In this document: one piece after another, positions 26,479 through 45,000 of the stretch
Numbering within the stretch: the stretch's first letter is position 1
Layout: each line of letters starts with the position of its first letter
Assembly: GCA_963921195.1 (NCBI GenBank)
Contig: OY992539.1
Span: forward strand, 99,642,964 to 99,706,963
Length of the DNA stretch: 64,000 nucleotides
Direction: 5' to 3'
DNA from: Pegoplata infirma
Taxonomy: Eukaryota; Arthropoda; Insecta; Diptera; Anthomyiidae
Program-made: the position numbers and the translations under genes
Notes under the pieces: generated by a model
Databases searched by the model: none
Told to the model about the DNA's origin: nothing
The model's input: the letters and a program-made list of their open reading frames with translations, nothing else

Positions 26479-29400
26479 ACAAGTAGAAAAGTTAAATTCG
26501 ACTTGGCCGAATCTATGAATACCCTCCACAATGCACATTTTAAGTGATAATAAATTTTCTAACGTTAAAAAAATAACAGTTTTGATTAGAAATATTTTAT
26601 TTTGTTTAAAAAAATTTTTTTTTAGTAATTTTGAAAAAAAAAAAAAAATTATTTACTATTTTTTTTTTTTGAGTGTAAAATTTTTTTTGAGTGTAAAACT
26701 TTTTTCGAGTGTATTTTTTTTTTTGTTTTGGTATAAAAATATTTTTGAGTGACAAAAATACGTTGTAAAATATTTTTGTGACTTACCAATGTTTTTAAAA
26801 CAGGTTTAACGGGTTTTCAACACGTGAATTTTAGGTGAAGCTAATCTGAAATTCACGGTTTTGCTAATAACTTTTGAACCACTCGACCGATTTGGCTGAA
26901 ATTGAGTACGAACGAGGCTGGAGGAACGCAAAAGATATATACCAAGCTTCAGCATCCTCAGAATTGCTTTTCGAAAGTTATAGTGCTTTTTATCTCAAAA
27001 ATTCACGAAAAACCCTTGCCGAAATTCAGTATTTTGCTCATGACTTTTGAACCACTGGACCGATTTCGCTGGATTGCAATACCAACCTGACCAGGTAAAT
27101 GACAAACATATATGCCAAACTTCAGGAGCCTCCGTTAAGTCTTTCAAAAGTTAGCGTGTTTTCAACAGACAGACAGACAGACAGACAGACAGACAGACAG
27201 ACAGACAGACAGACAGACAGACAGACAGACAGACAGACAGACAGACAGACAGACAGACAGACAGACAGACAGACAGACAGACAGACAGACAGACAGACAG
27301 ACAGACAGACAGACAGACAGACAGACAGACAGACAGACAGACAGACAGACAGACAGACAGACAGACAGACAGACAGACAGACAGACAGACAGACAGACAG
27401 ACAGACAGACAGACAGACAGACAGACAGACAGACAGACAGACAGACAGACAGACAGACAGACAGACAGACAGACAGACAGACAGACAGACAGACAGACAG
27501 ACAGACAGACAGACAGACAGACAGACAGACAGACAGACAGACAGACAGACAGACAGACAGACAGACAGACAGACAGACAGACAGACAGACAGACAGACAG
27601 ACAGACAGACAGACAGACAGACAGACAGACAGACAGACAGACAGACAGACAGACAGACAGACAGACAGACAGACAGACAGACAGACAGACAGACAGACAG
27701 ACAGACAGACAGACAGACAGACAGACAGACAGACAGACAGACAGACAGACAGACAGACAGACAGACAGACAGACAGACAGACAGACAGACAGACAGACAG
27801 ACAGACAGACAGACAGACAGACAGACAGACAGACAGACAGACAGACAGACAGACAGACAGACAGACAGACAGACAGACAGACAGACAGACAGACAGACAG
27901 ACAGACAGACAGACAGACAGACAGACAGACAGACAGACAGACAGACAGACAGACAGACAGACAGACAGACAGACAGACAGACAGACAGACAGACAGACAG
28001 ACAGACAGACAGACAGACAGACAGACAGACAGACAGACAGACAGACAGACAGACAGACAGACAGACAGACAGACAGACAGACAGACAGACAGACAGACAG
28101 ACAGACAGACAGACAGACAGACAGACAGACAGACAGACAGACAGACAGACAGACAGACAGACAGACAGACAGACAGACAGACAGACAGACAGACAGACAG
28201 ACAGACAGACAGACAGACAGACAGACAGACAGACAGACAGACAGACAGACAGACAGACAGACAGACAGACAGACAGACAGACAGACAGACAGACAGACAG
28301 ACAGACAGACAGACAGACAGACAGACAGACAGACAGACAGACAGACAGACAGACAGACAGACAGACAGACAGACAGACAGACAGACAGACAGACAGACAG
28401 ACAGACAGACAGACAGACAGACAGACAGACAGACAGACAGACAGACAGACAGACAGACAGACAGACAGACAGACAGACAGACAGACAGACAGACAGACAG
28501 ACAGACAGACAGACAGACAGACAGACAGACAGACAGACAGACAGACAGACAGACAGACAGACAGACAGACAGACAGACAGACAGACAGACAGACAGACAG
28601 ACAGACAGACAGACAGACAGACAGACAGACAGACAGACAGACAGACAGACAGACAGACAGACAGACAGACAGACAGACAGACAGACAGACAGACAGACAG
28701 ACAGACAGACAGACAGACAGACAGACAGACAGACAGACAGACAGACAGACAGACAGACAGACAGACAGACAGACAGACAGACAGACAGACAGACAGACAG
28801 ACAGACAGACAGACAGACAGACAGACAGACAGACAGACAGACAGACAGACAGACAGACAGACAGACAGACAGACAGACAGACAGACAGACAGACAGACAG
28901 ACAGACAGACAGACAGACAGACAGACAGACAGACAGACAGACAGACAGACAGACAGACAGACAGACAGACAGACAGACAGACAGACAGACAGACAGACAG
29001 ACAGACAGACAGACAGACAGACAGACAGACAGACAGACAGACAGACAGACAGACAGACAGACAGACAGACAGACAGACAGACAGACAGACAGACAGACAG
29101 ACAGACAGACAGACAGACAGACAGACAGACAGACAGACAGACAGACAGACAGACAGACAGACAGACAGACAGACAGACAGACAGACAGACAGACAGACAG
29201 ACAGACAGACAGACAGACAGACAGACAGACAGACAGACAGACAGACAGACAGACAGACAGACAGACAGACAGACAGACAGACAGACAGACAGACAGACAG
29301 ACAGACAGACAGACAGACAGACAGACAGACAGACAGACAGACAGACAGACAGACAGACAGACAGACAGACAGACAGACAGACAGACAGACAGACAGACAG

Positions 29401-32400
29401 ACAGACAGACAGACAGACAGACAGACAGACAGACAGACAGACAGACAGACAGACAGACAGACAGACAGACAGACAGACAGACAGACAGACAGACAGACAG
29501 ACAGACAGACAGACAGACAGACAGACAGACAGACAGACAGACAGACAGACAGACAGACAGACAGACAGACAGACAGACAGACAGACAGACAGACAGACAG
29601 ACAGACAGACAGACAGACAGACAGACAGACAGACAGACAGACAGACAGACAGACAGACAGACAGACAGACAGACAGACAGACAGACAGACAGACAGACAG
29701 ACAGACAGACAGACAGACAGACAGACAGACAGACAGACAGACAGACAGACAGACAGACAGACAGACAGACAGACAGACAGACAGACAGACAGACAGACAG
29801 ACAGACAGACAGACAGACAGACAGACAGACAGACAGACAGACAGACAGACAGACAGACAGACAGACAGACAGACAGACAGACAGACAGACAGACAGACAG
29901 ACAGACAGACAGACAGACAGACAGACAGACAGACAGACAGACAGACAGACAGACAGACAGACAGACAGACAGACAGACAGACAGACAGACAGACAGACAG
30001 ACAGACAGACAGACAGACAGACAGACAGACAGACAGACAGACAGACAGACAGACAGACAGACAGACAGACAGACAGACAGACAGACAGACAGACAGACAG
30101 ACAGACAGACAGACAGACAGACAGACAGACAGACAGACAGACAGACAGACAGACAGACAGACAGACAGACAGACAGACAGACAGACAGACAGACAGACAG
30201 ACAGACAGACAGACAGACAGACAGACAGACAGACAGACAGACAGACAGACAGACAGACAGACAGACAGACAGACAGACAGACAGACAGACAGACAGACAG
30301 ACAGACAGACAGACAGACAGACAGACAGACAGACAGACAGACAGACAGACAGACAGACAGACAGACAGACAGACAGACAGACAGACAGACAGACAGACAG
30401 ACAGACAGACAGACAGACAGACAGACAGACAGACAGACAGACAGACAGACAGACAGACAGACAGACAGACAGACAGACAGACAGACAGACAGACAGACAG
30501 ACAGACAGACAGACAGACAGACAGACAGACAGACAGACAGACAGACAGACAGACAGACAGACAGACAGACAGACAGACAGACAGACAGACAGACAGACAG
30601 ACAGACAGACAGACAGACAGACAGACAGACAGACAGACAGACAGACAGACAGACAGACAGACAGACAGACAGACAGACAGACAGACAGACAGACAGACAG
30701 ACAGACAGACAGACAGACAGACAGACAGACAGACAGACAGACAGACAGACAGACAGACAGACAGACAGACAGACAGACAGACAGACAGACAGACAGACAG
30801 ACAGACAGACAGACAGACAGACAGACAGACAGACAGACAGACAGACAGACAGACAGACAGACAGACAGACAGACAGACAGACAGACAGACAGACAGACAG
30901 ACAGACAGACAGACAGACAGACAGACAGACAGACAGACAGACAGACAGACAGACAGACAGACAGACAGACAGACAGACAGACAGACAGACAGACAGACAG
31001 ACAGACAGACAGACAGACAGACAGACAGACAGACAGACAGACAGACAGACAGACAGACAGACAGACAGACAGACAGACAGACAGACAGACAGACAGACAG
31101 ACAGACAGACAGACAGACAGACAGACAGACAGACAGACAGACAGACAGACAGACAGACAGACAGACAGACAGACAGACAGACAGACAGACAGACAGACAG
31201 ACAGACAGACAGACAGACAGACAGACAGACAGACAGACAGACAGACAGACAGACAGACAGACAGACAGACAGACAGACAGACAGACAGACAGACAGACAG
31301 ACAGACAGACAGACAGACAGACAGACAGACAGACAGACAGACAGACAGACAGACAGACAGACAGACAGACAGACAGACAGACAGACAGACAGACAGACAG
31401 ACAGACAGACAGACAGACAGACAGACAGACAGACAGACAGACAGACAGACAGACAGACAGACAGACAGACAGACAGACAGACAGACAGACAGACAGACAG
31501 ACAGACAGACAGACAGACAGACAGACAGACAGACAGACAGACAGACAGACAGACAGACAGACAGACAGACAGACAGACAGACAGACAGACAGACAGACAG
31601 ACAGACAGACAGACAGACAGACAGACAGACAGACAGACAGACAGACAGACAGACAGACAGACAGACAGACAGACAGACAGACAGACAGACAGACAGACAG
31701 ACAGACAGACAGACAGACAGACAGACAGACAGACAGACAGACAGACAGACAGACAGACAGACAGACAGACAGACAGACAGACAGACAGACAGACAGACAG
31801 ACAGACAGACAGACAGACAGACAGACAGACAGACAGACAGACAGACAGACAGACAGACAGACAGACAGACAGACAGACAGACAGACAGACAGACAGACAG
31901 ACAGACAGACAGACAGACAGACAGACAGACAGACAGACAGACAGACAGACAGACAGACAGACAGACAGACAGACAGACAGACAGACAGACAGACAGACAG
32001 ACAGACAGACAGACAGACAGACAGACAGACAGACAGACAGACAGACAGACAGACAGACAGACAGACAGACAGACAGACAGACAGACAGACAGACAGACAG
32101 ACAGACAGACAGACAGACAGACAGACAGACAGACAGACAGACAGACAGACAGACAGACAGACAGACAGACAGACAGACAGACAGACAGACAGACAGACAG
32201 ACAGACAGACAGACAGACAGACAGACAGACAGACAGACAGACAGACAGACAGACAGACAGACAGACAGACAGACAGACAGACAGACAGACAGACAGACAG
32301 ACAGACAGACAGACAGACAGACAGACAGACAGACAGACAGACAGACAGACAGACAGACAGACAGACAGACAGACAGACAGACAGACAGACAGACAGACAG

Positions 32401-44400: not shown

Positions 44401-45000
44401 ACAGACAGACAGACAGACAGACAGACAGACAGACAGACAGACAGACAGACAGACAGACAGACAGACAGACAGACAGACAGACAGACAGACAGACAGACAG
44501 ACAGACAGACAGACAGACAGACAGACAGACAGACAGACAGACAGACAGACAGACAGACAGACAGACAGACAGACAGACAGACAGACAGACAGACAGACAG
44601 ACAGACAGACAGACAGACAGACAGACAGACAGACAGACAGACAGACAGACAGACAGACAGACAGACAGACAGACAGACAGACAGACAGACAGACAGACAG
44701 ACAGACAGACAGACAGACAGACAGACAGACAGACAGACAGACAGACAGACAGACAGACAGACAGACAGACAGACAGACAGACAGACAGACAGACAGACAG
44801 ACAGACAGACAGACAGACAGACAGACAGACAGACAGACAGACAGACGGACGGACGGACGGACATCGCTAGATCGTCTTAAAATCGATCGAGGATCATGAA
44901 TATATATACTTTATGGGGTCCTAGACCAATATTTCGAGGTGTTACAAACGGAATGACAAACTTATATATACCCTCTATCACTAGAGTGGAGGGTATAAAA
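26479..45000 (+). mobile_element. mini-me element containing a giant (GACA)n expansion
   Basis: The 5' end is AACAAGTAGAAAAGTTAAAT with TTCGACTTGGCCGAATC, followed by CTCCACAATGCACATTTTAA. Two tandem ~160 bp blocks around CTTTTGAACCACT lie at 26860-27150, as in the copy at 11978-12803. The tetranucleotide tract is 27165-44863, followed by ATCGCTAGATCGTCTTAAAA, a (TA)n tract and TATCACTAGAGTGGAGGGTA. Without the array the element would be ~820 bp, the normal size here. Mini-me retroposons with a (TA)n and (GTCY)n tract flanking a conserved core are described from Diptera; assignment here is by layout. Confidence 0.85.
27165..44863. repeat. 17.7 kb (GACA)n tetranucleotide array
   Basis: About 4,400 units of GACA (CAGA/ACAG in other registers), almost without error for the first 10.7 kb. 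Interruptions: three GGCA units at about 37872-37882; about 16 CCAG/CAGC-type units clustered at 42925-43542; two ACAT units near 43587 and 43655; and GACG units at the 3' edge (44845-44863). All substitutions keep the 4 bp register. The unit has no stop in any phase or strand, so thousands-of-residue frames (TDRQ or CLSV repeats) are artefacts. True length depends on assembly quality. Confidence 0.95.

What the first reader, a model, noticed from the sequence alone, without database searches (positions are those of the whole stretch)
27165..44863. 17.7 kb (GACA)n expansion seeded in the microsatellite slot of a mini-me element
The flanking 5' and 3' sequences are a normal ~820 bp mini-me element. 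In at least seven other mini-me-like copies here the same slot holds only ~20-46 bp (about 3329, 10884, 12638, 14050, 47397, 57780, 63521). One copy has therefore grown several hundred-fold while keeping register. Mini-me elements have been proposed as microsatellite sources in Diptera; a single tract of this size is an extreme example and shows both states side by side.
Basis: partly seen in the sequence, partly recalled or inferred. Interest (0 to 1): 0.9.

Follow-up and report, generated by a model that had tools for sequence, protein, structure and literature searches.

The report
Runaway GACA arrays inside mini-me elements
In what is likely a fly genome, a four-letter repeat that is 20-110 bases long in nearly all close copies of a common mobile element has grown to 17.7 kb here and to hundreds or thousands of bases in hundreds of other copies, likely by runaway repeat expansion after insertion, and a second mobile element lies inside some of the grown arrays.

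Summary
Window 27165-44863 is 17,699 bp of (GACA)n with 25 mismatches and no indel, inside an otherwise ordinary ~820-bp mini-me/DINE-1-like element. It is not a lone freak. Pure GACA tracts of at least 74 units hold about 4.9 Mb of this genome; 729 of them end in GACG, and all 36 such ends that I read lead into a mini-me 5' block. In this subfamily 8,587 copies have the slot, 305 reach 14 pure units and 153 reach 72, which fits a threshold. The neighbouring GACG block in the same slot never passes 21 pure units anywhere, a built-in control for motif specificity. One insertion present at two loci has 54 bp in one and 1,046 bp in the other, so growth can follow insertion. The arrays also serve as a landing site: 18 of 20 fetched 5' ends of an R1-type retrotransposon lie in (ACAG)n. 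Seeding and parallel expansion are well supported; the molecular route of growth is inferred, and exact lengths rest on one assembly.

The parts
26480..45000 (-). mini-me/DINE-1-like element (about 820 bp without the array); its 5' end lies at the right
   Evidence: ends where most of 29 aligned copies lose similarity; subTIR, hairpin and GTCY slot read in the sequence
27165..44843 (+). expanded (GACA)n array
   Evidence: 21 substitutions in 17,675 bp, no indel
44844..44859 (+). unexpanded (GACG)4 block that closes the slot
   Evidence: homologous blocks in short relatives
44860..45000 (-). element 5' block with the core ATCGCTAGATCG and a (TA)n stretch
   Evidence: no substitution and one indel column against the majority of 29 relatives over 141 columns
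26519..26529 (+). 11-bp subterminal inverted repeat ATACCCTCCAC, element 3' side
   Evidence: read by eye; matches the inverse at 44986-44996
44986..44996 (+). 11-bp subterminal inverted repeat GTGGAGGGTAT, element 5' side, beside a partial inverted copy
   Evidence: read by eye
26496..26512 (+). short hairpin near the element 3' end (ATTCG...CGAAT)
   Evidence: read by eye; visible in most aligned copies
11982..12811 (+). unexpanded sister copy with a slot of about 25-35 bp

Best explanation
The 17.7-kb array is the expanded GACA block of the microsatellite slot of a mini-me/DINE-1-like element, one of hundreds of parallel expansions in this genome, and it likely grew after insertion by repeat expansion once the pure block had passed a threshold. 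Shown: element ends, slot, short and long states of one insertion at two loci, hundreds of long arrays, growth of GACA but not GACG, and R1-type retrotransposon insertions inside arrays. Inferred: most copies spread with a short (GACA)n(GACG)m slot; a few reached about 14 or more pure GACA units; from there slippage or recombination-dependent repair (out-of-register strand invasion, break-induced replication) would add long stretches of pure units and keep erasing variants, while the GACG block stays still.
For: Slot identity and ends. Same insertion, two states: L015 54 bp, L021 1,046 bp, about 190 bp of shared host flank on the left and 110 bp on the right at 98-99%. Pure-block survival: 8,587 copies with at least 2 units, 305 with at least 14, 153 with at least 72 (reversed-pattern controls 0); a geometric tail through the first two would leave far fewer than one copy at 72 (my arithmetic). 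729 GACG-ended long tracts; 20 of 20 ends not paired with this subfamily's left junction and 16 of 16 paired ones lead into mini-me blocks. 16 of 16 paired lengths (328-8,760 bp) are multiples of 4. (GACG)20: 6 overlapping hits, 5 places. Arrays purer than their carrier: 21 changes in 17,675 bp here, 3 in 30,178 bp over 18 other arrays, against 16 of 819 sites in this element's flanks.
Against: No reads were seen, so lengths and purity could be partly shaped by assembly and polishing. Folding energies do not explain the motif bias: (GACA)20 and (TGTC)20 fold at 0 kcal/mol while (GACG)20, which does not expand, folds at -8.8. Loss of the GACG-GACA interruption, which I expected to be required, is only enriched: 8 of 16 long arrays keep it against 24 of 28 short copies (p=0.016; 8 of 18 and p=0.007 with the window and L021 added). 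The divergence contrast uses the closest relatives found, and only 4 of the 16 flank changes are strictly private. The GACG-ended word has 60 hits when read backwards, though a reversed GACA repeat is no clean negative.
Confidence: 0.72

Rival explanations
1. Assembly artefact: the assembler or polisher inflated or collapsed a simple repeat, so the long tract is wrong in length or purity.
For: No reads available. Two fetched arrays begin right after N runs (L085, L095). The purity of the other arrays (3 changes in 30,178 bp) is striking and polishing could have removed variants.
Against: 16 of 16 paired arrays keep the 4-bp register between their ends over a broad range of lengths. GACA but not GACG tracts are long. 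A retrotransposon sits inside an array with array on both sides in L083. The window array has local variants.
Confidence: 0.1
2. Long arrays were copied with the element: a few expanded masters transposed and seeded many long copies.
For: Long copies look alike inside, so common descent of arrays cannot be excluded from the repeat itself.
Against: One insertion has both states at two loci. Long arrays occur in several diverged element types, with lengths from 328 bp to 17.7 kb and different closing blocks. Of the 29 closest relatives of the window copy that were fetched, 28 are short.
Confidence: 0.1
3. Growth is driven by the endonuclease of the R1-type retrotransposon that inserts into (ACAG)n: nicks in GACA but not GACG would be repaired by break-induced replication and lengthen the landing site.
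For: 18 of 20 fetched 5' ends lie in (ACAG)n, all 18 in one orientation, 16 of 18 at the same phase after CAGA by my reading. Copies as close as 1 difference in 1,500 sites point to recent activity. A review reports nick-induced large expansions with recombinational repair including break-induced replication (PMC12493176, passages). Hairpin strength does not explain the motif bias.
Against: Only association; insertion may simply follow expansion. The same review says multiple nicks inside a repeat may favour contraction. One insertion lies in (TAGA)n (L097), yet long (GATA)n is much scarcer: 27,795 overlapping hits at 74 units against 1,218,847 for GACA. No cutting of GACA or GACG was tested.
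Confidence: 0.15
4. The element inserted into an existing GACA array.
For: None found.
Against: The array lies inside the element, between its 3' part and its 5' block, at the slot that short copies share; the flanks outside the element are other A/T-rich DNA.
Confidence: 0.01

Closest known systems
mini-me (Wilder and Hollocher 2001; original not held, known here through passages of PMC2374699)
   Same: Dipteran element with a GTCY-rich microsatellite slot; the title of that paper ties mobile elements to the genesis of microsatellites
   Different: Here the slot reaches 17.7 kb and hundreds of copies have expanded; how long slots get in the original report I did not see
DINE-1/INE-1 as non-autonomous Helentron (PMC4067079, PMC2374699; passages read)
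   Same: Subterminal inverted repeats, partial inverted repeat beside the 5' one, GTCY block, 3' hairpin, T-rich insertion sites
   Different: In the passages read, most length variation comes from central repeats of about 50-500 bp; here the tetranucleotide slot grows
Helitron2_Cv of Calliphora vicina (PMC3630058; passages and one short section read)
   Same: About 750 bp, 11-bp subTIRs, GTCY-rich protosatellite, hairpin near the 3' end
   Different: No long array in the passages read; copies given as 136-767 bp; sequence not compared
Myotonic dystrophy type 2 CNBP repeat (PMC9462847, passages)
   Same: Adjacent tetranucleotide blocks with interruptions; uninterrupted expanded alleles of thousands of units; TCTG is the complement class of GACA
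   Different: One human locus and mainly CCTG; here hundreds of loci and GACA
R1-clade retrotransposons that target simple repeats, such as Waldo and Mino (Kojima and Fujiwara 2003 recalled, not held; Mino in AC repeats per a passage of PMC3124438)
   Same: ORF1 zinc knuckle, apurinic-like endonuclease and reverse transcriptase, insertion into a simple repeat
   Different: Target here is (ACAG)n, in the visible cases the expanded slot of another transposon

Membership tests
mini-me / DINE-1-like non-autonomous Helentron | 11-13 bp subterminal inverted repeats and a partial inverted repeat at the 5' end | tested here: met
   ATACCCTCCAC at 26519-26529 against GTGGAGGGTAT at 44986-44996, partial inverted copy at the 5' end, by eye
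mini-me / DINE-1-like non-autonomous Helentron | GTCY-rich microsatellite in a fixed slot next to the 5' core block | tested here: met
   28 of 29 relatives have 20-110 bp of GACA/GACG there, one has 1,046 bp
mini-me / DINE-1-like non-autonomous Helentron | short hairpin near the 3' end | tested here: met
   ATTCG...CGAAT at 26496-26512, by eye, in most aligned copies
mini-me / DINE-1-like non-autonomous Helentron | insertion at TT without coding capacity | tested here: inconclusive
   A/T-rich flanks in most copies, no empty sites compared; of the stop-to-stop frames of at least 110 codons in the window only array-made ones cross the slot
mini-me / DINE-1-like non-autonomous Helentron | mobilised by a Rep/helicase Helentron | not tested
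   no search for an autonomous partner was made
R1-clade non-LTR retrotransposon (inserted element) | apurinic-like endonuclease plus reverse transcriptase, ORF1 zinc knuckle | tested here: met
   Exo_endo_phos_2 3.7e-20, RVT_1 8e-33, zf-CCHC 2.3e-4; endonuclease region matches TRAS1 1.7e-13 and R1Bm 1e-5, reverse transcriptase region matches R2 and LINE-1; two relatives named R1 in Lucilia cuprina, 49% and 56%
R1-clade non-LTR retrotransposon (inserted element) | placement in the R1 clade by phylogeny | not tested
   no tree built

The most novel reading that the evidence does not exclude
A retrotransposon builds its own landing site: its (ACAG)-specific endonuclease nicks the GACA block of mini-me elements, repair by break-induced replication turns short slots into kilobase arrays, and the retrotransposon then inserts there, so two unrelated mobile elements together create a dispersed satellite.
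Probability: 0.15. Interest if true: 0.93.

Novelty: new variant of a known kind. Interest (0 to 1): 0.77.

Why it matters
Repeat expansion is mostly studied one disease locus at a time. Here one genome offers thousands of closely similar starting slots at different positions, hundreds of them expanded, with a neighbouring motif in the same slot that does not expand. That makes threshold, motif specificity, purity and flanking effects measurable in parallel. It also shows how a short repeat inside a transposon can turn into megabases of dispersed satellite and become habitat for another transposon.

Tried and rejected
Interruption loss as a requirement: rejected; 8 of 16 long arrays keep the interruption, so it is only enriched. 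The first script for this misread the phase of the short copies; its short-copy table and p-value are void and replace them. Hairpin stability as the cause of motif choice: not supported. The open frames of about 5,900 codons through the array in all six frames are a trivial result of a period-4 repeat without stop codons. First guess that L007 was a retrotransposon tail: rejected, its right end leads into a mini-me block. GATA control: long (GATA)n exists, with 27,795 overlapping hits at 74 units against 1,218,847 for (GACA)74; in the first 76.8 Mb of C1 the listing shows 2 such GATA places against 62 GACG-ended GACA tracts. Literature: searches listed no paper that I could recognise, by title, abstract start or passages read, as reporting kilobase GACA arrays in mini-me elements; only openly licensed papers are held, and the Wilder and Hollocher and Kojima and Fujiwara originals were not read (one not held). 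Open: 4.9 Mb over 729 ends gives about 6.7 kb a tract, against a mean of 2.2 kb in the 16 paired arrays of this subfamily; the others would have to be longer, or many long tracts end otherwise.
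Full report
The array. Window 27165-44863 is one tandem array of period 4. Against a perfect ACAG phase it has 25 mismatches and no indel; four of these are the GACG units at its right end, 16 are GCCA units clustered in 42925-43541, three are adjacent GGCA units near 37.88 kb, and two are single TACA units. The 10.7 kb at the left are without one variant.

The carrier. Twenty-nine close relatives elsewhere in the genome (left flank 97% identical) were compared with the window copy. Twenty-five of 29 share its left end near 26480, and 25 of the 27 aligned on the right share its right end near 44999; outside these ends the host DNA differs, except for the pair L015 and L021. 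The element is about 820 bp without array and lies on the minus strand. It has 11-bp subterminal inverted repeats, a partial inverted repeat at its 5' end, a conserved 5' block with a (TA)n stretch, the GTCY slot and a short hairpin near its 3' end, which fits the descriptions of mini-me, DINE-1 and Helitron2_Cv (PMC2374699, PMC4067079 and PMC3630058, passages). In 28 of the 29 relatives the slot is about 20-110 bp; 24 of those 28 read (GACA)n, GACG, GACA, (GACG)m or close variants with such an interruption, and 4 lack it. One, L021, has 1,046 bp.

Growth after insertion. L015 and L021 share about 190 bp of host flank on the left and 110 bp on the right, at 98-99% over the aligned pieces, and differ further out apart from one 121-bp piece. 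The simplest reading is one insertion duplicated with its immediate surroundings. L015 has a pure (GACA)n(GACG)4 slot of 54 bp, L021 has 1,046 bp. The window element differs from the majority of its relatives at 16 of 819 sites (11 further indel columns set aside), four of them private, while its array has 21 changes in 17,675 bp and 18 other arrays have 3 in 30,178 bp (7 of the 20 retrotransposon loci were left out because the array did not fill the stretch). Arrays are therefore young or constantly renewed, with the caveat that polishing could remove variants.

Hundreds of parallel cases. (GACA)6 gives 1,359,284 overlapping hits, about 5.4 Mb or 0.4% of the 1.384-Gb assembly, and (GACA)74 gives 1,218,847, about 4.9 Mb: most of this repeat lies in long pure tracts. 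The junction word of this subfamily occurs 8,587 times; 305 copies continue for at least 14 pure units and 153 for at least 72. A geometric decline from the first to the second number would leave essentially none at 72 (my arithmetic), so the tail is a second regime. Tracts of 74 units that end in GACG number 729; the pattern read backwards has 60 hits. I fetched 320 bp beyond 20 of these ends, in order along contig C1 and passing over those paired with this subfamily's left junction: 20 of 20 continue into a mini-me 5' block, by my reading of at least four types; one of them (L040) is cut short after 45 bases. Of 19 left ends of this subfamily on C1 up to 160 Mb, 16 pair with a right end; the distances run from 328 to 8,760 bp, median 1,050, all multiples of 4 (the right ends beyond 89.4 Mb were checked by eye). 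All 16 of these right ends also lead into the core block, two of them (L104, L111) through altered units. L007 would be 13.8 kb from its start to the next right end if it is continuous; I read its first 1.5 kb and its end. The window array is the longest that I measured or bounded.

Motif specificity. The slots of this subfamily have a GACG block beside the GACA block. GACG runs of 20 units occur at 5 places in the genome and none passes 21 units. Predicted DNA folding goes the wrong way to explain this. The interruption is less common in long arrays (8 of 16) than in short copies (24 of 28; p=0.016) but is not a barrier; one long array counted as free of it (L108) has altered units there. Long (GATA)n exists with 27,795 hits at 74 units, about 44 times fewer than (GACA)74.

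A second element in the arrays. The three unpaired left ends led to this. In two of them the array is broken by the same non-LTR retrotransposon; in L083 the array resumes after its poly(A) end. In the third (C1:14698474) the samples at 4 and 6 kb are array and the one at 8 kb is not; I did not read its end. The retrotransposon has an ORF1 with a zinc knuckle and an ORF2 with endonuclease and reverse transcriptase; in L083 ORF2 is spread over two overlapping frames. Among solved structures its endonuclease region matches TRAS1 and R1Bm, and two of the listed relatives are named R1 in Lucilia cuprina. A 5'-end word finds 25 copies (control 0). Of the 20 fetched, 18 begin in (ACAG)n, one in (TAGA)n and one elsewhere; all 18 have the same orientation and 16 join after CAGA by my reading. 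Where the start of the array is visible without N (L086, L091, L099) the flank is mini-me-like: L086 matches the window element and L091 the L007 flank by BLAST, L099 is read by eye from its junction. Eighteen of 20 copies lie 14-28% from the majority sequence, in several subfamilies, and two are further off; 16 of 20 have a neighbour within 0.8%. That suggests a lasting and still recent association.

Mechanism. Shown: slot origin, two states of one insertion, threshold-like survival, growth of GACA but not GACG, purity, and use as an insertion site. Inferred: growth by slippage or by recombination-dependent repair. Nicks can drive large expansions through recombinational repair including break-induced replication (PMC12493176, passages), and the DM2 locus shows that mixed tetranucleotide slots can reach tens of kilobases (PMC9462847, passages). 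The retrotransposon's endonuclease would be a source of GACA-specific nicks; that is untested and is given as the novel case.

Limits. No reads, one assembly, host unnamed; that it is a fly is inferred from the element type and the Lucilia relatives. Copies and ends were counted by exact words, so diverged copies are missed, and the GACG-ended word favours mini-me arrays over any others; GACA tracts that end otherwise were not sampled, apart from the three unpaired ones and the retrotransposon loci.

Noticed in passing
L083:604-5898 and L084-L103: R1-type non-LTR retrotransposon inserted in (ACAG)n arrays in one orientation; 25 copies by 5'-end word
   Followed up: partly
window 55285-55951: A 21-bp minisatellite (CAATTGTATTTCAGAAATTAT) runs one way for about 420 bp and then in the opposite orientation for 230 bp, a large inverted tandem repeat
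   Followed up: no
window 13393-13972: 290-bp tandem duplication, 97% alike, beside a mini-me copy
   Followed up: no
window 60326-60880: Open frame with a Methuselah N-terminal domain, E 1.6e-20
   Followed up: no
window 6830-7345: Reverse-transcriptase-like fragment (DUF6451 3.9e-13; RVT_1 7.1e-6, below Pfam's cut-off)
   Followed up: no
G000:C1:58196931-58222429: Four long GACA right ends on one strand within 26 kb, a local cluster of expanded copies
   Followed up: no
G000:C1:33134779 and C1:76773463: Long pure (GATA)n arrays; their context is unknown
   Followed up: no
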